Positions 13,439 through 55,472 of a DNA stretch of 64,000 nt are shown here, one piece after another; within the stretch, counting starts at the first letter, position 1, and every line of letters starts with the position of its first letter. Below the pieces are notes generated by a model, which was given only the letters and a program-made list of their open reading frames with translations, was not told where the DNA came from and searched no databases. Source of the DNA: Hymenoscyphus infarciens. Taxonomy: Eukaryota; Ascomycota; Leotiomycetes; Helotiales; Helotiaceae. Location of the stretch: positions 38,937 to 102,936 of the forward strand of contig LLCB01000217.1 in NCBI GenBank assembly GCA_001414345.1, in the 5' to 3' direction. A program made the position numbers and the translations under genes.

Positions 13439-13808
13439 TATAATAGTATACTATTCTAAATTACTAGTATTCGTAGAACTACTAATATCTCTAATACCTT
13501 AAAGCTAAGATTATAATTAATCTAATACTTATATAATAGAAAGTACTAAAAAGATTAAGATTTAAATATTATATATTTAGCTTTAAAGTCTTTTATTTAA
13601 TATTAGCTATATTAGAAAGAGCTCGGTTATTATTATTATTAGAACTTAGTAGTCTCTAACCTCTTATATATAGATGTTTATACTTAGTATAGAAGAGAGA
13701 TAGTTTTTCCTTTTCTTTTATATTAGAGCCTAGTTTTTATATATATTATTCTACTAAATATACTCTTATATACCTCTTCTATAGTAGTATATAATTTGTA
13801 CTATTATA
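13439..13808 (+). repeat. Element Y 5' LTR
   Basis: The 370-bp LTR runs TATAATAG to CTATTATA. A TATA-like run near 13660-13670 precedes AGTTTTTCCTTTT at 13702-13714, the likely 5' end of the transcript. Its first 190 bp are unlike the X LTRs, while the last part is shared. Confidence 0.88.
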
Positions 13809-13810
13809 TA

Positions 13811-13823
13811 AAAAGGAAAAACT
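13811..13823 (+). promoter_or_regulatory. Self-priming primer-binding site of element Y
   Basis: AAAAGGAAAAACT starts three bases after the LTR end and is the exact reverse complement of 13702-13714 inside the LTR. This is the arrangement used by Tf1/sushi-group elements, where the RNA 5' end acts as primer. No tRNA complement is evident. Confidence 0.7.
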
Positions 13824-13849
13824 CTTCTTTACTAGTAATAGTCTTAATA

Positions 13850-16800
13850 ATATCTCTTTTAAGCTTATTATTACTTTTTATTTCAAAATCGATTTAGTCT
13901 AGATTTAGACTATTATAACACTATTCTTAAATAGCTAGATAATCAGAGACTACCTAGATAGCTAGTAATACTAAGGTTTAGTATCTATATAAATATCTAG
14001 TAAAAATCGTATTACTAATCTATTAAGAGATTAGAATATACTAAGTATTTCTAAGAATTCTAATAACTCTCTTAGTATAGAGACTACTATACTCGATTTA
14101 GATAGTTAATATACTATAGTTATCTAAAAGACTTTTAAATTAACTCTTTTATCTCTTCTAAATTAATATTTAAGAACTAGATTACTTAGCTAGCTAATTA
14201 CCTTCTAACTCTCTACTTTAGTAAAGAGAATTTACTTTTACTTTCTAGCTAGAACTAGAAACCTATTTTAAATTACTATTTAGATACAAATTAAAGAGAA
14301 TATATAATCTATTAATAAGAAAGATATAAAAAGAGTAGACTTATTAATATAGCTAAGTTATTACTCTTATCTATAAAAACATCTCTTAAAATTTTAACCT
14401 CTAACTATAGTTTAAAGCTTCTTTAAACTACTAGTATAGCTTTAAAAAGCTAGACTTTATACTCTTTTATTAGTAAAATAAGTATAAACACTATATATTT
14501 TAATATAAAATAATCTAACTTAGAATTCTATATAACTAGTATCTATAAGCTAGATTAGATTATTAATAAAAGATTAGTACCTCTTTAGAATAATAATAAT
14601 ATAAGAGCTCTAATATAAGTCTAACTTTTAAAATATTACTCTTTTTATAAAGACGTATTTTTAAAAATAGCTTCTAATAAACTCTCTTCTTACTATAAAT
14701 ATAACTATAAGATTACTTTAAATAAACTACTTCTTAACACCTTTTTACCTCTATATTAATAGTTAATTATAAAGCTTAAAGCTATAAAAGAGTATCTTAT
14801 AAAGAATCTAGATAAAGAGTTTATTATTAATAGTAAGAGCTCTTTTACCTCTCTAGTACTTTTTATTAAAAAAGCTAATAATAATAAGTTATAGTTCTAT
14901 CTTAATTATAGAAAGCTAAATACTCTAACTTAAAATAATCTCTATCTAATCTCTTAAATTAATAAACTTCTTTTAAAAATAAAAATAACTAAAATCTTTA
15001 CTAAGTTAGATATAAGATAAGCTTTCTATTATATCTAAATAGATCTTAACTTAGAAGAGATAACTATATTTAGAACTAAGTATAGTATATATAAATATAA
15101 GGTTCTTCTTTTTAAACTCTATAATAGCTCTATTACTTATTAATATTATATAAACAACGTCTTAATTAACTATCTAGATAACTTCTATATTATTTACTTA
15201 AATAATATTTTAATTTATTTAGATAATATTAAAGAATATAAGAAATAGGTTAAGAAGGTTCTAAATTAGCTTTAAGAAGTAAGACTTTAAATAGATATTA
15301 AGAAAAGCAAATTTAGTATTATTAAAGTTAAATACTTAAGATTTATCTTAACTATAAAGAGACTAAAAGTTAAGCTTAAAAAGGTAGTGTCTTTATAAAA
15401 CTAGGTTTAACCTAATACTATAATAGGTATAAAGTCTTATCTTAGGTTTATAAGATTCTATAAATAATTTATTAAAGGTTATACTAAAATTACTAAACCT
15501 CTAACTATAATAATATACTCTATAAAGCTATTTTTATAAATACTTAAATATAAAGAAGTCTTTAAAGTCTTAAAAACTAGGCTACTTATAATTTAAACCT
15601 TATACTACTTTAACTCTAATTATAATATAAAACTAGAAATAGACTTCTTAAAAAGAGTAATAGTAGATATATTCTTATAATAGTATAATAGCCTTTAGTA
15701 CTTTATTAAGTTTTACTTATAAATCTTAGTTAGCTATAAATTAAACTAGAAGATCTATAATAAAGAGCTATCTACTATTATAGAAGCTTTTAAGAAATAG
15801 TATCTTAAACTTATATTATATTAGAAGTATATTAATATCTATTTAGATTTTAGATTATTAGAATACTTTATAATAACTAAGCTACTTATAGCTAAGTAAG
15901 TTTAATAAATAGAGTTCTTATTAGACTTTAACTTTTAAATCTAATTTATATCTAGAAAGAGTAATTAAAAAGTAGATATATTAATTTAATATAAATAAAA
16001 CCTAAAAACCTATAATTAAGCTAAATTAGATAGCTACTTATATACTCTTTTAGACTCTAATTATTTAGATATCTAAATTAATACTAAACTTACTTAAACC
16101 TTTTTATAAGAATAGTCTATATCTCTTAATATAATTTAGTTAAATATTATTCTAAAAATAAGTTTAGATATAATTTAAAAGTTAAAAGAAGATAACTTAT
16201 ACTCTTTTTAGAAAGAACGTTATAAACTTCTAAATAAATACTATCTTTTAATAGATAATTTACTACTTTTTAAGAATCGACTTTATATTTAAAAGAATAC
16301 TAAACTCTATATAAAACTAATCTAAGAAGTCTATAACTAAGTATCTAGTATTTACCTAAGTATAAAAAAGATATACTAGTAATTAGTATAATACTACTAC
16401 TAGGCTAGAACAGTTTTAGACTATAGAAGGTATATAGTAAATTATTAAGCTTATAAATACTTCTATTCTTAATAAACTAAGTAATAAGGCTTTCTTTACT
16501 TTCTACTTATACTTAACTATTCTATATAATATTTATATATAAACTTTAAATTATTCTTAAAAGATAAAGATAGATTTAATACTATATTAGTATTTATTAA
16601 CTAGCTTAGAAAAGATTTAGTATTAATACTCTACTACTTAACTATAGATACTAAAGAACTAGTTAAATAGAAGAGGTTTATAGTAAATTAAGGAATTAGC
16701 TTAATAAGTAGAGAGAGGTATATATATACCTCTTCTCGTGCTAAGTAATCTCTATTCTACTAATAATACTTTCTATTGCTTTTGACGTCTTATTTAGTAT

Positions 16801-18100
16801 TAAGCTCTTTTTCAACTCTACTCTTATATCTCTTTATAATACGCTCGCTAGAATTAGTTAGAACTTTTTTAGCTTCTTAAATAAGTACGATAGCTAATAG
16901 TACTTACTCTTTTCACTCTTATATTAGTAAGATACTTAGAGAGCCTTCTAATTAGCTTAAAAAGAAAGTATATAAGAGAGTATAGAGTGAGATACTAGAA
17001 GCTAGCTAGTAAATATAGAACTTCTTAAAATAGTCTTAAATACGTATATATAACGAAAAGCGATAAACTTATTATTTAATAGATTTACTATTTTAGTTAC
17101 TACTTTATATTAATTATATCTAATTAAGAACTTTAATTTATATTATTATTTTAAACTAAATTTTATTAAATAATTAGTATTAAGCTTAAGCTTAATACTA
17201 CTTACTATAGATAGATAAATAAGTAGATAGAGATAATAAACTAATATATTAATTAGAGACTAAGGCTCTTTATAATCTACTATTTAGAGTAAAGTAATTC
17301 TTTTAATAAATAGAGTATAAATAATACTTTTATACTTATCTATTAGTATAACCTCTTATTAGCTTAAGTTTAGACTTAATCTAAGAACTTTATAGAACTA
17401 GAATATACTAAAGACTTTAATTCCCTAGAAATAACTTAACTATAATAAAGTAGTAAAAGTAGCTTAATATATATACTCTACTTAGAAGATAGCTAAAGAT
17501 AATATAGATAAAGTCTAATAAAGAATAGAGAATAGTAAAATTAGTACTAAAGAGCTATTAACTAGGATATTAAAGATAAAGTCTACTTATTAACTAAGAA
17601 CTTTAAGATAAATCGTCTTAGTTAAAAGCTTATTAAATAGTAGATAGAACCTTTTAAAATACTAGATCGTATAAAATACTTCTATAAGCTAAAACTTCTT
17701 AAAGGTTTATTAATTTATAATGTTTTTACTCTTAATATACTTTTAAAGGATTTAAATACCTCTCTACTAGAATAAGAAGCTTTAGAGCTCTTACTAGATA
17801 TTATTAAAGATATATAAGAATAGAAGAGATAAGAAATACTTAGTAGTAGACTTTTTAAAAGATAGCTATAGTATTAAGTAAAATAGGTTAGCTATAATTT
17901 AGATTCTACTTAGTATCTTAGAAATAACTTATAGAGTTTACTATACTATTTAAGAGACTTTTATATTAAATATCTAAAAGAGCTAGGACTATTTTAACTC
18001 TTATCTAAATAAATTAATATATAGGAATTAAATAAGAATTAGATAAAAGAGTTACTTTATAAACTTTATTAATACCTTTTAATTCTAGTTACTCTTAAAA
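13850..18100 (+). pseudogene. Element Y gag-pol relic
   Basis: Around 15150-15400 the plus strand reads YLNNILIYLDN (RIP-altered YLDDILIY) and then RFILTIKRLKV, the gypsy RT thumb region. The RNase H connection follows (RFIRFYK-FIKGYTKITKPL, 15440-15500) and then KLEIDFLKRVIV (about 15625). The integrase core begins before 16677 and resumes at 17068. With the 390-bp insertion removed, KELVKLII runs on to FILIISN and then IKLKLNTTYY, matching the integrase D-x(n)-D region and its STAYHPQTDG-like box. Gag probably occupies about 13850-14450, but no domain was recognised there. A C-terminal chromodomain was not identified. Confidence 0.75.
16678..17067 (+). mobile_element. Solo A2-B2 terminus of the YR retrotransposon
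   Basis: This 390-bp unit matches 7306-7709 from TAGAAGAGG to GCGATAAA. It interrupts the integrase frame of element Y between 16677 and 17068 with no target duplication; only AAA recurs at the two edges. It is the YR counterpart of a solo LTR. It could arise by recombination between the direct repeats of a full insertion, or by integration of a short circle. Confidence 0.8.
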
Positions 18101-18240
18101 GGAACTTATAATAAAAACCTAAGATAAAATACTAACTAGTAGGAATATTTAAAATTAATAAAGTAAAGAACTAAGACTAAGTTACTACTAAAATAAGGTC
18201 TATACTATCTCTTCTTCCTCTAACTTATTATTCTTCTCTC

Positions 18241-18780
18241 TATAATAGTATACTATTATTCTAGATAGCTAGAAGTATCTACTATATATAAGGTTTTAGT
18301 AGTTATTATCTTATATTATCTATTTTAGAAAGGTTACGTAGGTTTAGGCTTTTATATTAGCCGACGTATAACGTTAGTCGGTTTCGGATCTTTTTTTATC
18401 CGAACCTCTTATATTTAGTAGCCTACTCTTCTAGAGTTAGAAAAGGCTAGTTTTTCCTTTTCTTCTATATTAGAGCCTAGTATCTATATACGTTATTCTA
18501 TTCCGAACGTACTCCTATATACCTCTTCTATAGTAGTATATATTTCGTACTATTATATAAAAAGGAAAAACTAGCCTTTTCTAACTCTAGGAGAGTAGGC
18601 TGCTATATATAAGAGGTTTAGACAAAAAAAGGTCTAAAATTAACTAACGTTATACGTCGGCTAATATAAAAGCTCGAACCTATATAACCTTTCTAAAATA
18701 GATAATATAAGATAATAACTACTAAAACCTTATATATAATAGGTACTTCTAGCTATCTAGGATAATAGTATACTATTATA
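18241..18780. mobile_element. Palindromic LTR insertion (U3-R-U5-PBS plus inverted U3)
   Basis: A complete 317-bp LTR (18241-18557) is followed after two bases by the primer-binding site AAAAGGAAAAACT (18560-18572). From 18573 to 18780 the sequence is the reverse complement of 18241-18448, the part of the LTR upstream of its matching AGTTTTTCCTTTT (18449-18461). Both arms are exactly 208 bp, and the differences I compared are transitions. Both outer ends are U3 ends (TATAATAG and CTATTATA) flanked by CTCTC (18236-18240, 18781-18785). The unit therefore looks integrated as a piece, into element Y. The flanks are CT-rich, which weakens the duplication evidence a little. Confidence 0.85.
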
Positions 18781-19296
18781 CTCTCTACTCTTCTAAGTAT
18801 AAGAAGCCTAAATTAGCTCTTCTTCTACCTTCTTCTTATAAGAACGCTTCTTATCTTAGTAACCTCTTATAATAGACTTAGAAGAGGACGCTTATAAACT
18901 CTTTAAATAGGCTTTAAAAAAGACCTAAACCTAGTTTTAGATAGTGGTTCTATTCTCTATAGTACTATATAAGAACTATTAAATATTAGTAACTAAAACC
19001 TCTCTAATAAGTAAGAGATATCTATAATAACCTTAGTATAAAGCGTCTAAGTCTTCTCTAAGAGAGCGAACTATATCTCTAAACTATTCTTTAGTACCTC
19101 TATACTAGTAATAACTAATATCTTTTCTAAGGCCTTAGTTACTCTCTTAATCTCCTTTATCTCCTTCTTAAGCTTAAGCTTACTAAACTCCTTCTCTATA
19201 AACTATAGCAACTATCTAAGTTAGAATAGATTTAGTATATATTTAAGATTAAACTTACTAAGATATATATAGTATTCTACTTAATATAGTATCTAT

Positions 19297-45850: not shown

Positions 45851-46280
45851 AATTTAGAGCCTATTTAGCTTATATAAAGTATTTAAATATATATACGAAT
45901 ATTTAATAAGATACTCTAAATAGTAATCTCGTATATATTAGTATATATTATTAATTATTTCTTAATATATTAAGTAAACGTTTAGCTCGTAGTATCTATT
46001 CTAGTATATATTCTTATTAGTAGTATAGATAGATGTCTTAATAGTAGTAAAAAAACATATATATAAAAAGTTTTAAAGATTTATATCTCTAGAGGTCTAA
46101 AACCTTTTTTAGTAGTATATATTCTAATTATATATATACTAAGATATACGAGGTTAAATAAGAGATTTATATCACTTTTAAATATAGATACTAAATACTA
46201 GTATATATATATAATTAGTATATATATATATATATATTACCTTCTGATTTTTAGTAGTGTATATCCTAGATATAAACAGG
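45851..46280 (+). repeat. Dispersed 430-bp repeat, left copy
   Basis: It matches 61136-61500 in the same orientation, including TTAGCTCGTAGTAT, AAGTTTTAAAGATTTATATC and a TTCTGATTTTTA near the end. It lacks an ORF. It abuts the GC-normal island. Confidence 0.65.
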
Positions 46281-46504
46281 CCCTTAGTATGTTTTCATTA
46301 ATATTTATTATTAGAATTTTTTCGTAGATTTCCACGGATTCCACGGCATCCGACATCGAAGATGCGGGGAAGCGTCAAAGCACTTTCTTATAAGAGAACT
46401 TCAATTCGCTAGCTTTCTTCTCCGGAGTGGTGCTTTTTCATACCAAAAGAAAGTCTCCCGTCTTGAGAAAGTCACAATCGCAAAGCAAACTCCACGGCCT
46501 CCCA

Positions 46505-47321
46505 ATGGCAACCTTCCGTATTGCAACGGAGGCTGAAGATGAGACCTTGGCATGTTTATTTTACAACGGTTTCCTCCATGTCTGGTACTAGTTGCTATAG
46601 AATATTACTTGAAAGCCTTTAACAATAGAACAGGGGCGCCAACTGGATGCAAGCACGCATAGAACCCTTGCCCGACAGGTATATAAAACCTAGCGAACTA
46701 AAGTCTCTTGCAGCTCCTCAATTCGCACGCGTATCTTTCTACCTAGCCCTCATCAAACTGACACGCCTTATTTCTGGCTCCATCACCATCGCTATCCCCA
46801 CAAGTACGCCATCAGATCCCAATCCACCACCGAGCGCCGCACTCCTCTGGTTCCCTCCACATGCTAGACCGTCTTTCCTTTCTCTATGTCGGTCTGGCTT
46901 TCTTTATACCATGATTTTTCAATACGGGCTAAAGGCACTTTGGAATCTCATCAATTTTGAGCGGGATCTCGAAGCACTTAACTTCTCTGTACTCTCCCCT
47001 TTGGGATACCAAAGGCAAGACTGCGGCTTTGCATTCCTGATTGCGGCGGAGCCAAGATTTCGTGGGAAGGCATACGGTGCAAAACTTTTGGAGAGACAAA
47101 TTGAGATCCATAGAACGGAATATCCAGATGTTCCAGTAGTCTTAGACACGACGACGGATCAAGCGCAGAAGGTTTATGAGCGAATTGGTCTCCGACTCTT
47201 GGGCACGACGGCTGTGAATACAGGAACGGATGATCATGGGATTAAAATCAGAAATGCAGGACAAGCCGGACGCTTTTTGAAGAGGGTTCTGATTCTCCTA
47301 CCTAGCTCGTCAACTTCCTAG
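46505..47321 (+). pseudogene. GNAT-family N-acetyltransferase, broken
   Basis: The longest open frame (46647-47321, 224 codons) covers the acetyl-CoA fold. RFRGKAYGAKLL at residues 137-148 is the R-x-x-G-x-A acetyl-CoA loop, and KVYERIGLRLLG (residues 174-185) is the usual motif B. The ATG at 46647 is probably not the true start. Upstream, an ATG at 46505 begins MATFRIATEAEDETLACLFY, a typical fungal GNAT N-terminus. That frame meets TAG at 46589 and further TAG and TGA codons before ITIEQG-like residues (LTIEQGRQLDA, about 46623-46655), and lies one frame off the 46647 ORF. Several stops fit TGG or CAG changed by a G>A or C>T. The substrate is unknown. An intron that repairs the frame was not found. 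Confidence 0.72.
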
Positions 47322-47367
47322 GGGGAGAATCTTGAGCAACAACAAATCCGTTCGCTACCCGGGTATT

Positions 47368-47829
47368 CTACTTCGTAAAATTCAAGTCATCAAACACACC
47401 AATTCCCAGTTTCCCGATCGTCTTAAACCAGTGCCCATCCTCGCAATTGACAGCTTTATTCAATTGTAGCTTCTGGCATCTCGCATCTCGTCCGCAGCTC
47501 TCTAACCCCGGTTCTCGTCGCTCGCCTCTTGCAATGCTGATTTTTTCTTCTGCGCAGCCAATTTTCGACCAAGTTCCGAATTTGGTTTTGCGGTGCAATT
47601 GAAACGTGCCTCCGCTGCTGCTGCTCGTTGTACTCGTTGCTGTGGTCAAATCTTAGTCCGAAATAAATAAAACGTCCATGTGGGGTCGAATATACCTCTT
47701 TGTTTCTCTGAGCAACAACTTCAGGATCTCAGGATCGCTGTTGCACAGGGGCCTGAACTGGCGCGGCTTGACTCTGTGCGAAGACCTAAAAAAGATGACC
47801 GATGATAATGAAGAGACCTTAGGCTAGTA
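47368..47829 (-). pseudogene. Small cysteine-containing hypothetical protein, probably broken
   Basis: The open minus-strand frame (47649 to 47368) has no ATG and begins inside a Ser/Thr-rich part. It then reads GTFQLHRKTKFGTWSKIGC, with four Cys in all and a compact C-terminus ending FDDLNFTK. The same frame stays open upstream to about 47825 except for one TAA at 47655-47653. It reads QFRPLCNSDPEILKLLLRE on the way, which suggests a longer protein with a CAA-to-TAA change. Another frame upstream reads VFAQSQAAPVQAP, which looks like the end of a secretion signal. A TTTTTTAG just before it could be a splice acceptor. A secreted protein is possible but not shown. I do not recognise the family. 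Confidence 0.4.
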
Positions 47830-47995
47830 GAGCCAGCTAATGCAGGTACGCTTATTTGGTTCCCCAGTGGCATAAAAGTGAGAGATGCATAAGTGCGGCT
47901 GGCAGAGTAGTCTATTCCTAATCTAGCTAGCTTAGGCTCACTCGTTTAACGGCCGGGCGTTGTCGCACTATAAGCAGACCACACCCTAGTATACG

Positions 47996-48439
47996 TGACT
48001 AATATATTGCTTTTAATTATAAATATTATTAATAAGAGGCTAAAAGACTATCTAATTAGCTAAAGTAAGAGAGAAAGATATCTAAAGAGTAAATAGTAAG
48101 AGGTATATAAATCGAAGTTTAGAGATATCACGTATTAGCGTCTATAGATAGTCGATTCTTAGAGTTAAAAAAAAGTCGAAAAGTGTCTTATAATAAGATA
48201 GTAGAAGTATAAGCAGTTAAATACTCTAATTAGAAATAGTAGTAAAAGTAGTATAAGTTAGTCTACTACGAGTATACGGATTTAACTAGGCTTTAACCTA
48301 GACTAGAGCGAGAGTATAGCGTTATAACCTCGCTCTAACTTAGGTAGTACGATATACTAAGATATTATAACCTAATACTAGAAAACTATAATAGAAGTTT
48401 AATTTCTAAAATATTATATACTTTATAAGAACGTAAAAA
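47996..48439. other. AT-rich stretch with one arm of a distant inverted repeat
   Basis: No gene was seen. 48255-48375 (with GTTATAACCTCGCTCTAAC) is the inverted partner of about 58035-58160. The two arms sit outside the minisatellite, so they may be the ends of a larger old unit that contains it. Confidence 0.45.
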
Positions 48440-48638
48440 TTATATATTTATTTCTAGTTACTAGTTTATTAAATATATATATTAATATAATATTTATTAT
48501 TTATACTTCTAACTTTATTAGTAAATAGTCTAATAATAAGATATATATATATATATATAAATATACTTTTAAAATCTATTACTTTATTATAAAATAGTAT
48601 ATTAATAAGATATATAAATATAAATAAACTTTTAAAAC
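48440..48638. repeat. Minisatellite, left part (about 3 units)
   Basis: Degenerate units of about 63 bp match the array at 55473-57490. The array is split here by the X-family element, whose AAAAC duplication (48634-48638 and 55473-55477) is part of the repeat unit. Confidence 0.7.
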
Positions 48639-48994
48639 TATAATAGCACGAAATATATACAACTATAGAAGAGGCATATGAGAGTGCGTTTAGTAGAATG
48701 ACGTATGTAAATACTAGGCTCTGATACGGAAGAAAAGGCTAAACTGGCCTTTTCTGACTCTAGGAGAGTAGGCTACTATATATAAGAGGTTCAGACGATA
48801 TAAAAGGGGTACGAAACCGAACAACAACATACGTCGGCTAATATAAAAGCCCGAACCCTACGAAGTATATCCGAAAGTCCGGACGTACGTACAGACGTAT
48901 ATAACCTTCCTAAATTAGACAATGTAAAACAACAACTACCGAAACACGGCATATGCCATGTAATCTCGGCTATATAGGACGGCATGCTGTCACA
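48639..48994 (-). repeat. X host 3' LTR, lightly mutated
   Basis: The 356-bp LTR runs from TATAATAGCACG to GCATGCTGTCACA on the plus strand. It retains many CpA and TpG. The hairpin-like AAAAGGCCAGTTTAGCC lies on its minus strand. Confidence 0.88.
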
Positions 48995-49439
48995 TCCCCC
49001 TCCCTTGAAAAAGACTCGTCCTCGAGTCTCTCTATCTTATCGTTCAGGGCTGAATCGGGATGGTGTAAGTGTTGCATTTGTCGTATTTTATTGATTTTGT
49101 CGTAAGCGAGAAGGTAAGGGTCTGAATCGTAGCTGACCCGAGTTCGTAGATGCTTTGTTTATCGTAATGTCGTAAGCGAGATGTCGGCTTCGAATCGACT
49201 TCGTTGATGCTTGCAAAATAGAGACTTCGTTTCTAATCCTTCAATATTAAAGCAAGCATTCGCGTCCGCTAAAAGAGTGTAGTCCGATCCGTCTAGCAGT
49301 CGGAGAAAGTTCAAAGTTCAAAGTTCAAAAAGTTCAAAAGTTCAAAGTTCAAAAGTTCAAAAGTTCAAAAGTTCGGAGTAAAATCAGAAAAAGTTTAAAG
49401 CAGAGTCAGAGACGAACATCGAGAGGTAACGTTGTAGGT

Positions 49440-49900
49440 AACAGTGATATCTCAGCTAAGAGTTCACTTCGAGGGTGTACCGATTCACATCCGATTCAAA
49501 GAATTCAAAAAAAAGAGTGTAGGTCTGGAAAAGTTCAGAGTAGAGTCGGAGGTCGTTCAGTTGAGAGGCAGTGATGTCTCAGTTAAGAGCTTACTTCGAG
49601 AGCGTACTGATTCGTATCTGATTCGAATTTACTAAAAGAGTGTAGGTCTGAAAAAGTTTAGAATAAAGTCGGAAGCGAAATCAGAGTAGAGTCGGAAGTC
49701 GTTCGGTCGGTAGGCAGTGATAACTCAGTTAAGAGCTCACTTCTGAGTTGCGTCCTATTGGAAAGCGTATTTCGACCGATTCGCATCCGGGTCCGTCTAA
49801 ACTGAGGTCGGCTGGTTTTCAGAGTAAAGTTGGAAACGATAATGTCGTAGACAGTGATAACTCAGCTAAGAGGTCACTATCCTTTTGAGAGCGTACTAAT
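49440..49900 (-). repeat. Tandem repeat of about 130-145 bp inside X
   Basis: The motif CAGTGATNNCTCAGYTAAGAG recurs at about 49442, 49569, 49716 and 49852. Each copy is followed by a TCACTTC-like segment and TTCGTATCCGATTCGAA-like DNA. A diverged unit is seen near 51225. Upstream, 49310-49378 is a short array of AAAGTTC. No protein is indicated: short frames here are chance openings. Confidence 0.65.
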
Positions 49901-49984
49901 TCGTATCCGATTCGAAGAATTCAAATAAAAAGGAACTTCTAGCCTAGCCAGAAGTGAAAGAAAGTAAGAAAGTAAAGAATATAA

Positions 49985-50645
49985 GAAAGACTCCTTACTA
50001 GAGTCGGTAGGGTTTTGGCTAGTTAAAAGAGTTTGTTGCTGAATGTTGAAAATGCTGTCTGAAGTTCGAGATAACAAAAGGAGGAGTTTCGGCTGGTTAA
50101 ATGAACTTAATGCCTTAAGTTATTGTATTATTCTAGTAACTAGGGATAATAAAAAGGGTAGTTTCAGCTAGTTAAAAGCGAAGTTGTTACCGAAGTTTAT
50201 CGAATTGTCCGAGTATCTAGGGACAATAAAAGGGATGGTTTCGGCTGGTTAAAATAAAAGAGTTGTTACCGAATATTATTAAAATTTTGCTGTCCGAAGT
50301 TTAGGATAACAAAAGGGGTAGTTTCGGCTGGTTAAAGGCGAAGTTGTTTCCGAAGTTGTTAGAGTTTTGCTGTCCGAAGTTCGAGACAACAAAAGGAGGA
50401 GTTTTAGCTAGTTAAAAGCGAAGTTGTAGCCGTGTTGCCGAAGTTGTCGTATTATCCGAAGTTCGGGATAATAATAAGGGTAGTTTCGGCTGGTCAAAGG
50501 AGTTTGTTGCCGAATGTTATCAAAGTTTGAAATTTGTTATCCGAGTATCCGAGGACAACAAAAGGGGTGGTTCGGCTGGTTAAATGAGTTGTTGCCGAAT
50601 GTTGAAAACGCTGTCCGAGTATCCGGACAACAAAAGGGACAGTTA
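49985..50645 (-). repeat. Tandem repeat of about 70-84 bp inside X (8 units)
   Basis: Eight copies of a segment with TTTCGGCTGGTTAAA occur at spacings of 70, 79, 73, 84, 81, 82 and 83 bases. Each is preceded by GACAACAAAAGGGG-like DNA and contains GTTGTTGCCGAA-like DNA. The frame is not kept at multiples of three, so this is not a coding repeat. It is the main difference from the shorter X copy inserted next to it. Confidence 0.75.
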
Positions 50646-51679
50646 CAGATACGGCATCATCTAAGTGCGGATGTCTAGTCGTATGAAACTGTATTGCTCA
50701 GGCCCGTAGGCCGCCTCGTTCCCTTCAGCAATTCGGGTCTGAATCGGGGTACTTAAGGGCTTATTTGTAATCATCTTCCGATTTCGAAGAAAGAGTCGCT
50801 GTCGTATTATAGGGAGCTCGGAGCTAGATGGAGGGGTATTCTAAACCGAAATACTAATATCGAATAATTTCGTCGTTTCCGAATATTCAGCTTCGATGTC
50901 CCTCCTTATCTATAGCTAAAAGATTGTTTACTATTTTAGTAAAGTTGTAATTCTAGCGTCTCTTAAAAGTAGTAGACAGGTTTTAGAGCTAAGGTGTAAT
51001 CTTATCCCATATATAAAAGAACTATTCCTATTCTCTCCGAGTATAGCTGTACTCGAAAAGCGAACGTTTCTTTAGCGTAATCTTCTTCTTAATTCCACTT
51101 CTATCTCTTTTAACCTTTGTACCAGCGGGGACTCGGTCTGTAACTGTAGTCTTTCAAATGTTTGCTAGTAGAGGGAAGTTTAGAGTAGAGTTAGATAATA
51201 TTCAGTCGGGATTAATAAAGATAGCAATAACTTAGCTAAGAGCTCGCTTCTGAGTTTCATCCTAAAGGAAAGCGTATTTCAACCGATTTATATCCGATTT
51301 AAGGGAGATAGTAGAAAGGTATCAAGGGCAGCGGTGTCTCTTAAGCGAAAGAGGTCTAAATTCGGGCTTTAAAAGCAAAGGAGGGTTCGAACAAAGGTTC
51401 GAAAGAGAGTCGGATCAGTGAGGGTTCGAAGGTAGGATTTTTAACTTCGAAGTTCGCTTATAATTTTATCCTCCATCTCTCTAACCGATCGTTTTGTCCT
51501 TTGTGTGCCGCTATCTCGTCCGTATGTTATCCGCATTTTGAGAAGTCTCTTCGAGACCTTTTATGTTTACTATACGGTTTTCGGTTCAAAGAGGGTTCAG
51601 AGAGTCTTTCGAAAAGGAAGGGTGGCCCTGGAAGGTCGTTCAACGCCTCGTGGCGGAACTGATTCGGAGAGAGACCTAA

Positions 51680-52034
51680 TGTAACGGCATGCCGTCCTAT
51701 ATAGCCGATATTACATGGCATATGCCGTGTTTCAGTAGTTGTTGTTTTACATTATCTAATTTAGGAAGGTTACGTACGTCCGTACGTCTGTCTAGACTTT
51801 CAGACGTACTTTGTAGGGTTCAGGCTTTTGTATTAGCCGACGTATGTCGTTATTCGGTTTCGTACCCCTTTTTGTCGTCTAAACCTCTTATATATAGCAG
51901 CCTACTCTCCTAGAGTCAGAAAAGGCTAGTTTAGCCTTTTCTTCTGTATTAGAGCCTAGTATTTATATACGTTATTCTACTAAATGTACTCCTATATACC
52001 TCTTTTATAGTTATATATATTTCGTGTTATTATA
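51680..52034 (+). repeat. X inserted copy 5' LTR
   Basis: It begins TGTAACGGCATGCCGTCC, showing the ancestral TG edge. It is CpA/TpG-rich compared with the 3' LTR at 54384-54738. Confidence 0.88.
51889..51940 (+). promoter_or_regulatory. X LTR promoter: TATA box and self-primer segment
   Basis: TATATATA (51889-51896) lies about 32-39 bases before AGTTTAGCCTTTT (51928-51940). The spacing suits transcription starting at or just before this segment. Together with the bases before it the segment can form a hairpin, AAAAGGCTA-GTT-TAGCCTTTT. Confidence 0.6.
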
Positions 52035-54383: not shown

Positions 54384-54738
54384 TATAATAGTATACCGTC
54401 TTATATAGCTAATATTACATAGTATATGCCGTGTTTTAGTAGTTATTATTTTATATTATCTAATTTAGGAAGGTTATATACGTCTATACGTCTGTCTAGA
54501 CTTTTAGACGTACTTCGTAGAGTTTAAGCTTTTATATTAGCTAACGTATGTCGTTATTCGGTTTCGTACCCCTTTTTGTCGTCTAAACCTCTTATATATA
54601 GCAGCCTACTCTCCTAGAGTTAGAAAAGGCTAGTTTAGCCTTTTCTTCTATATTAGAGCCTAGTATTTATATACGTCATTCTACTAAACGCACTCCTATA
54701 TATCTCTTCTATAGTTGTATATATTTCGTACTATTATA
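54384..54738 (+). repeat. X inserted copy 3' LTR, heavily mutated
   Basis: The 355-bp partner of 51680-52034 begins TATAATAGTATACC. Differences from the 5' LTR are nearly all C>T or G>A. Confidence 0.88.
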
Positions 54739-55101
54739 TCTAAGGTCTTCTCGGAAATTCGACATAATAATATCGATTTAGAGGGAGAGAGAGAGTAAGG
54801 TTAGGTTTAGAAGCCTTCGTAATAACTATAATAAGTCGACTTATTCACTAATCCTAGGGTTATTAGGATTCTCAAAAACACTTAGTATATTCTAATCTCT
54901 TAATATATCTATAATACGATTTTTACTAGCTATCTATATAAATACTAAACCCTAGTATTACTAGCTATCTAGATAGTCTTTAATTATCTAGCTATTTAAG
55001 AATACTATTATAATATCTAAATCTAGGCTAAATTAATTTCAAAATAAAGAGTAGCGACAAGCTTAAAGGAGATATTATTAAAGCTATTACTAGCGAAGAA
55101 G

Positions 55102-55114
55102 AGTTTAGCCTTTT
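55102..55114 (-). promoter_or_regulatory. Self-priming primer-binding site of host X
   Basis: On the minus strand this reads AAAAGGCTAAACT, starting three bases from the LTR at 55117-55472. Its LTR partner has one RIP-type change (AAAAGACTAAACT on the plus strand at 55211-55223). Confidence 0.65.
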
Positions 55115-55116
55115 TA

Positions 55117-55472
55117 TATAATAACACGAAATATATATAACTATAGAAGAGGTATATAGGAGTACGTTTAGTAGAATAACGTATATAAATACTAGGCTCT
55201 AATATAGAAGAAAAGACTAAACTAGCCTTTTCTAACTCTAGAAGAGTAGGCTACTATATATAAGAGGTTTAGACGATATAAAAGAGGTACGAAACCGAAC
55301 AACGACATACGTCGGCTAATATAAAAGCCCGAACTCTACGAAGTATATCTAAAAGTCTAGACGTACGTATAGACGTATATAACCTTTCTAAATTAGATAA
55401 TACAAAACAATAACTACTGAAACACGGTATATACTATGTAATCTCGGCTATATAGAACGGTATACTATTATA
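55117..55472 (-). repeat. X host 5' LTR, heavily mutated
   Basis: The 356-bp LTR runs from TATAATAACACG to CTATTATA on the plus strand. It is the partner of 48639-48994, followed by AAAAC. Confidence 0.88.

What the first reader, a model, noticed from the sequence alone, without database searches (positions are those of the whole stretch)
18236..18785. Integrated fold-back product of a self-priming LTR retrotransposon
The unit reads U3-R-U5-PBS and then switches, at the last base of the primer-binding site, to the exact reverse complement of everything upstream of the matching primer segment. Both arms are 208 bp (18241-18448 and 18573-18780). If plus-strand strong-stop DNA (U3-R-U5-PBS) folded so that its 3' PBS paired with its own AGTTTTTCCTTTT, extension would copy U3 back to the end and give precisely this molecule. 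Both termini would then be valid U3 ends for integrase, and CTCTC flanks both sides. I know of no described insertion class with this structure. Seen: the arms, the switch point and the flanks. Inferred: the mechanism.
Basis: partly seen in the sequence, partly recalled or inferred. Interest (0 to 1): 0.9.

Follow-up and report, generated by a model that had tools for sequence, protein, structure and literature searches.

The report
Fold-back ends of a self-priming retrotransposon
A fungal-type jumping gene that primes its own copying sometimes appears to bend its new DNA strand back on itself, copy its own end in reverse and still insert into the genome, leaving a mirror-image insertion seen at several places.

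Summary
Window 18241-18780 is U3, R-U5, PBS, then inverted U3, between CTCTC duplications. The arms (208 bp each) are 90% identical, not exact; 19 of 20 differences are transitions, as RIP would leave. The parent is a Ty3-class LTR retrotransposon whose PBS matches the start of R and covaries with it (58 of 63), as in Tf1-type self-priming. Seven more loci in this genome carry the same U5-PBS/inverted-U3 join (searches asked for that join). In six loci with readable arms, arms match in length, without indels and with at most one transversion; different loci differ by indels, so they arose separately. Four of five testable loci have a 5-bp duplication; C247 does not. The decisive copy, C136, is a full-length element whose 3' LTR carries PBS plus inverted U3 inside one TTACT duplication. 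So the fold-back happens on reverse-transcription DNA before integration, and two U3 ends can integrate. Short copies may be solo-LTR derivatives or directly integrated strong-stop hairpins; undecided. Nine library searches listed no description. It is an aberrant product (about 1% of PBS joins), not a new kind of element.

The parts
18236..18240 (.). left 5-bp target-site duplication CTCTC
18241..18448 (+). U3, left arm (208 bp)
   Evidence: LTR start from alignment of other copies
18449..18461 (+). R start / self-primer AGTTTTTCCTTTT (transcription start inferred, not measured)
   Evidence: complementary to the PBS and concordant with it in 58 of 63
18449..18557 (+). R-U5, end of LTR (LTR = 18241-18557, 317 bp)
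   Evidence: many LTR matches without PBS stop at query position 317-320
18560..18572 (+). PBS AAAAGGAAAAACT (after TA at 18558-18559); switch point at its last base
18573..18780 (-). inverted U3, right arm (208 bp)
18781..18785 (.). right 5-bp target-site duplication CTCTC
13658..13823 (+). partial 5' LTR with PBS of an ordinary copy upstream in the window (context)
14904..15338 (+). RIP-damaged reverse transcriptase domain downstream of it (PF00078, E 4.5e-12; 14760-16000 matches Ty3 RT/RNase H 4ol8, E 8.1e-32) (context)
   Evidence: frame read with X at stops, nothing mended
17575..17736 (+). weak Tf2-1-like SH3 domain match (20.8 bits, below the cut-off of 30) (context)

Best explanation
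During reverse transcription of a Tf1-type self-priming element, plus-strand DNA copies the self-primer and so ends in the PBS. Instead of pairing with the minus-strand PBS complement (second strand transfer), this 3' end pairs with the complement that a self-priming element carries at the start of R. Polymerase extends it and copies U3 backwards to the 5' end of U3. The DNA then ends in an inverted U3, which integrase accepts, giving an insertion with U3 at both ends and a normal 5-bp duplication. C136 shows this on a full-length element; the short copy in the window is either the LTR-LTR recombination remnant of such an insertion (slightly preferred) or a directly integrated strong-stop product. 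SHOWN: structure, switch point, matching arms, duplications, PBS/R concordance, the full-length C136 case. INFERRED: strand identity, enzyme steps, the nick at the PPT/U3 border, how two 3' ends were supplied, and which route made the short copies.
For: Eight loci with the U5-PBS/inverted-U3 join against 504 and 348 ordinary PBS-internal joins. Arms within each of six readable units: equal length, 0 gap events, 0-1 transversions, 15-41 transitions; every comparison between units has at least 1 gap event. Exact duplications: CTCTC (C132, window), AATAC (C245), ATTAT (C19); TTACT (C136); chance about 0.003 per site. C136: PPT precedes the left U3 and PBS-U3' follows the 3' LTR; a search for TTACT + LTR start, written to fit the C136 arm, had one 0-mismatch hit in the genome, at the expected place and strand in C136, with the uncommon TATAGAGC of the C136 left arm. 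An integrated 3' LTR has no PBS after it, so the join points to a cDNA intermediate. RT matches Ty3 RT and lies 2,859-2,925 bases after the PBS in 43 of 47 PBS/RT pairs found among 200 listed PBS sites. Single-stranded U3-R-U5-PBS of the window is predicted to fold with all 13 PBS bases on the R start (z -4.3).
Against: C247 has no matching duplication (TAAGA/TATAG). In C732 the inverted U3 runs on into PPT' and antisense 3' internal sequence (40 nt in all), then half a PBS plus sense internal sequence, so the copied strand did not always end at U3; its duplication was not tested. C225 and C721 are known only from the junction pattern (C225) and an alignment. The searches selected for the PBS-end join. 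No cDNA was observed.
Confidence: 0.78

Rival explanations
1. Same core, other route: plus-strand strong-stop DNA (U3-R-U5-PBS) folds back on its own, becomes a short duplex with two U3 ends, and is integrated as such; C136 is a separate variant. This rival concerns only the route of the short copies, so its probability overlaps with the best explanation.
For: Short copies with exact duplications (C132, C245, C19) outnumber the one full-length copy C136. The strand is predicted to fold as required.
Against: A hairpin has one 3' end and integrase needs two (established knowledge). LTRs with neither PPT nor PBS (solo-like) are common: 7 of 37 ordinary LTRs that I classified by eye, against 16 5' and 14 3' LTRs, so recombination can explain the short copies; 4:1 against 7:15 is not significant (p 0.13; the 4 includes C247 without duplication).
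Confidence: 0.33
2. Chromosomal snap-back: a replication or repair fork at an integrated 5' LTR folds at the 13-bp PBS/R inverted repeat and copies U3 back.
For: The PBS and R start form an inverted repeat in ordinary 5' LTRs too.
Against: It predicts inverted flanks; the flanks are direct 5-bp duplications at four loci. It cannot act at a 3' LTR, which has no PBS, yet C136 is a 3' LTR.
Confidence: 0.04
3. A mobile foldback or MITE-like family: one palindromic unit formed once and then spread.
For: Eight loci of one architecture.
Against: Arms match within a unit, not between units (0 against at least 1 gap events); three PBS variants are represented; one copy is part of a full-length element.
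Confidence: 0.05
4. Assembly joins or later ectopic recombination between oppositely oriented LTRs.
For: The fetched loci hold many neighbouring and nested LTRs; C247 lacks a duplication.
Against: Same base-exact join at several loci, duplications at four, reversed control pattern 0 hits.
Confidence: 0.03

Closest known systems
Tf1/sushi self-priming LTR retrotransposons (Tf1, Tf2, Tj1)
   Same: PBS next to the LTR complementary to the start of R; Ty3-class RT; leader RNA predicted to fold with the PBS on the R start (z -2.3); self-priming as described in passages seen of PMC4600332, PMC10085805, PMC6317226
   Different: The fold-back end (PBS plus inverted U3) is not mentioned in the passages I saw
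Solo LTRs
   Same: Short, LTR-derived, own duplication; they arise by LTR-LTR recombination (PMC7175516, passage)
   Different: This unit also carries a PBS and a second, inverted U3, and ends in U3 at both sides
DIRS-type elements
   Same: inverted terminal repeats in a retroelement (recalled)
   Different: DIRS elements use a tyrosine recombinase and make no target duplication (recalled); these units have 5-bp duplications and look like by-products of ordinary LTR elements
Self-primed (snap-back) reverse transcripts made in vitro and retroviral palindromic LTR-LTR junctions
   Same: a DNA end folded on itself as primer, or palindromic LTR junctions (recalled)
   Different: Here the fold is fixed by the PBS/R complementarity and the product is integrated and inherited

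Membership tests
Tf1/sushi self-priming LTR retrotransposon (parent family) | PBS complementary to the 5' end of R within the LTR | tested here: met
   three R-start variants matched by the PBS in 58 of 63 scanned copies (2 discordant, 3 with an unclassified motif on one or both sides; 6 of the 63 are the fold-backs). That the 13-mer is the start of R is inferred
Tf1/sushi self-priming LTR retrotransposon (parent family) | Ty3/Metaviridae reverse transcriptase | tested here: met
   4ol8 Ty3 RT/RNase H, E 8.1e-32; RT at a fixed distance from the PBS
Tf1/sushi self-priming LTR retrotransposon (parent family) | Tf1/sushi-clade integrase C-terminal domain | tested here: inconclusive
   SH3_Tf2-1 20.8 bits, below cut-off 30; no tree was built
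Tf1/sushi self-priming LTR retrotransposon (parent family) | 5-bp target-site duplication | tested here: met
   for four fold-backs (C247 fails); one search shows CCTAG and CTTTT on both sides of two solo LTRs (C738, C742)
Tf1/sushi self-priming LTR retrotransposon (parent family) | mRNA starts at the R start and its 5' end is cleaved as primer | not testable with these tools
   no RNA data
Solo LTR | one LTR and nothing else between duplications | tested here: not met
   PBS and inverted U3 present
Foldback/MITE DNA transposon family | units share descent from one mobile unit | tested here: not met
   arms match within, not between, the six readable units
DIRS | no target-site duplication (recalled) | tested here: not met
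   duplications at four loci

The most novel reading that the evidence does not exclude
Self-priming LTR retrotransposons have a built-in third end-state of reverse transcription: the PBS end of plus-strand DNA is captured by the R start, on the same or another plus-sense strand. This yields cDNAs with two U3 ends that integrate (about 1% of the PBS joins counted here) and can return to the normal pathway by a further template switch (C732). The resulting insertions carry two convergent U3 promoters around R-U5 and would make hairpin RNA from their own LTR, a possible silencing trigger.
Probability: 0.4. Interest if true: 0.8.

Novelty: new variant of a known kind. Interest (0 to 1): 0.7.

Why it matters
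It looks like a genomic record of a reverse-transcription side-reaction open to self-priming elements, because they carry the PBS complement inside the LTR. It bears on whether the self-primer copy persists on full-length cDNA, indicates that integrase can use two U3 ends, and gives a sequence tag (PBS joined to inverted U3) that can be searched in other genomes with Tf1/sushi elements and tested in fission yeast.

Tried and rejected
Chromosomal snap-back, a mobile foldback family, assembly joins and independent nested inverted LTRs were considered (see rivals). Inverted LTR neighbours in the fetched loci: L022, L044, L050, L060 and window 54385/55102 have gaps of 110-353 bp and two largely complete LTRs, so I read them as separate insertions; L032 reads like an LTR inserted into another; L021, L024, L059 and L067 were not examined base by base. 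Head-to-head matches at about 60-72% (L012, L015, L016, L017, L020, L031) start at the palindrome at the LTR start and look like chance extension; not followed. After the PBS, 54 of 63 copies continue into internal sequence, 6 into inverted U3 and 3 into something else (one of the three, ATTCTTCGCTAG, looks like ordinary internal sequence). C361:12134 (2 mismatches) reads like an ordinary LTR on the antisense strand and was not counted. One search used a pattern with one N too many and found nothing. Six-frame translation of internal regions showed only broken frames. A fold-back switching inside U5 or U3 could have been missed.

Full report
Observation. The unit at window 18241-18780 is present as described: U3 (18241-18448), R-U5 to 18557, PBS 18560-18572, then inverted U3 (18573-18780), flanked by CTCTC on both sides. 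The arms are 208 bp each and 90.4% identical: 19 transitions, 1 transversion, no gap. CA and TG each make up about 0.7% of dinucleotides in the window, the mark of RIP as I know it, which would explain the transitions. Over the six readable units the arms differ by 155 transitions, of which 50 lie in plain CpA/TpG context and 60 next to another changed base.

The parent family. Other copies in the same 65.6-Mb genome define the LTR as 317 bp in this subfamily: 5' LTRs match on through the PBS, 3' and solo LTRs stop at about 317. The PBS is complementary to a 13-mer inside the LTR, taken here as the start of R. The 13-mer exists in three variants (TT, AG, ATT), and in 58 of 63 copies scanned in the fetched loci the PBS carries the same variant; 2 are discordant and 3 have an unclassified motif on one or both sides; 6 of the 63 are the fold-backs themselves (rows). 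This is the signature of self-priming, in which the PBS is rewritten from the mRNA's own 5' end. The element is Ty3-class: RT in the window matches Ty3 RT/RNase H (4ol8, E 8.1e-32) and PF00078 (E 4.5e-12). Of 200 listed PBS sites (100 of 504, 100 of 348), 47 PBS/RT pairs lie 0-6 kb apart on the same strand, 43 of them at 2,859-2,925 bases, with 0 opposite-strand pairs at 2.7-3.1 kb (RT list = the 150 matches). An RNase H and a Tf2-1-like SH3 match are below their Pfam cut-offs, so the clade within Ty3-class is not settled here. The leader RNA is predicted to fold with the PBS on the R start (z -2.3).

Other fold-backs. The second copy (C245) came up in plain LTR searches. A pattern across U5 end, PBS and inverted U3 found four loci (C19, C132 = window, C136, C245; reversed control 0). 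A pattern for the 12-bp PBS variant found two more at 0 mismatches (C247, C732); the other 63 of 65 hits are at 3 mismatches and read as the ordinary LTR on its antisense strand. A RIP-tolerant pattern (6 hits) refound the four, added C225 and hit C361, which I read as an ordinary LTR. A 231-base junction query aligned over 214 query bases or more at eight places: these seven plus C721 at 84%; the ordinary LTRs align over about 140-150 bases. It scored 40 of 2,521 candidates, so eight is a lower bound. All these searches asked for a join at the PBS end, so they say little about other switch points; among inverted LTR neighbours in the fetched loci I recognised none. Ordinary PBS-internal joins number 504 and 348 at up to 2 mismatches (assumed not to overlap), so the known fold-backs are about 1% (8 of 860).

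Independence. In the six units whose arms could be read, the arms are 208/208, 211/211, 257/257, 248/248, 257/257 and 245/245 bases (C132, C245, C19, C136, C247, C732), with 0 gap events, 0-1 transversions and 15-41 transitions within a unit; every pair from different units has at least one gap event (the C136 left arm was trimmed by one base). Each inverted U3 was therefore copied from the same LTR or an identical one, and the events are separate.

Duplications. CTCTC (C132), AATAC (C245), ATTAT (C19) and TTACT (C136) are exact; chance per site about 0.003. C247 has TAAGA/TATAG, no duplication. The far end of C732 and the flanks of C225 and C721 could not be read (34 covered C732, 37 and 38 C225; C721 was not asked for).

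The decisive copy. In C136 the left U3 is preceded by the PPT and internal sequence, and the 3' LTR is followed by PBS and inverted U3, then TTACT. About 3.5 kb upstream lies the end of a 5' LTR with the same PBS variant, 94% identical over 162 bases; its U3 is interrupted by another element. A search for TTACT plus LTR start, written so as to fit the C136 left arm, gave 58 hits, one of them with 0 mismatches: C136:115909-115939, on the same strand, with the uncommon TATAGAGC of the C136 left arm (the right arm reads TATAAAGC; one other listed hit, in C224, shares TATAGAGC). One other contig, C381, has TTACT before an ordinary LTR start at 1 mismatch. I conclude that the whole element, with U3 at both ends, went in at once. 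A PBS after a 3' LTR exists only in reverse-transcription DNA, which places the event before integration.

C732 extends the picture: its inverted U3 continues into the complement of the PPT and of 3' internal sequence (40 nt in all), then half a PBS and sense internal sequence. I read this as the same capture on a strand that did not end at U3, rescued by a second switch; this is inference.

Mechanism. Plus-strand DNA ends in the copied self-primer (PBS), pairs with the R start, and copies U3 to its end. A recalled result (Atwood-Moore et al. 2006; only the title seen, in a reference list; the paper is not held) is that the Tf1 self-primer is not removed, which would leave such an end on full-length cDNA. 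Single-stranded U3-R-U5-PBS of the window is predicted to fold with all 13 PBS bases on the R start. For the short copies, LTR-LTR recombination of a C136-type insertion is enough: 7 of 37 ordinary LTRs that I classified by eye have neither PPT nor PBS (16 are 5', 14 are 3'; of 46 rows, four weak partial rows were not passed on, four are fold-back arms and one had no fetched locus). Direct integration of a strong-stop product is not excluded (4:1 against 7:15, p 0.13).

Novelty. Nine library searches listed no paper whose title, abstract start or viewed passages describe such insertions; passages were viewed in PMC5445492, PMC6317226, PMC4600332, PMC7175516, PMC10085805 and PMC3601003. Most subscription papers, and so probably most of the Tf1 literature, are not held, so this is weak evidence of absence. 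I rate it a new variant of a known kind: an aberrant, integrated product of a known replication mode.

Noticed in passing
C732:220250-221250 (L074): Fold-back whose inverted U3 runs on into PPT' and antisense internal sequence (40 nt in all), then half a PBS and sense internal sequence; beside another LTR piece.
   Followed up: partly
L025, L028, L036: Copies whose R-start and PBS motifs disagree; possibly recombinants between subfamilies or co-packaged RNAs, which would show primer exchange.
   Followed up: no
window 13658-17736: RIP-broken ordinary copy with LTR-PBS, an RT domain and weak RNase H and Tf2-1-like SH3 matches below cut-off; RT lies about 1.1 kb after the PBS instead of 2.9 kb, so part of gag is probably deleted; the fold-back starts about 0.5 kb after the SH3 match.
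   Followed up: partly
window 46001-52000: Island of higher G+C with more CA/TG in the RIP-depleted window; a 224-aa ORF at 46647-47321 has GNAT acetyltransferase matches below cut-off.
   Followed up: partly
window 54385-55471: Two LTRs of the longer subfamily in opposite orientation 353 bp apart; read as separate insertions.
   Followed up: no
window 18242-18259: The LTR begins with an 18-bp perfect palindrome just inside the terminus; the first bases recur in many copies, and the exact 19-mer was found 21 times in the fetched loci, both strands.
   Followed up: no
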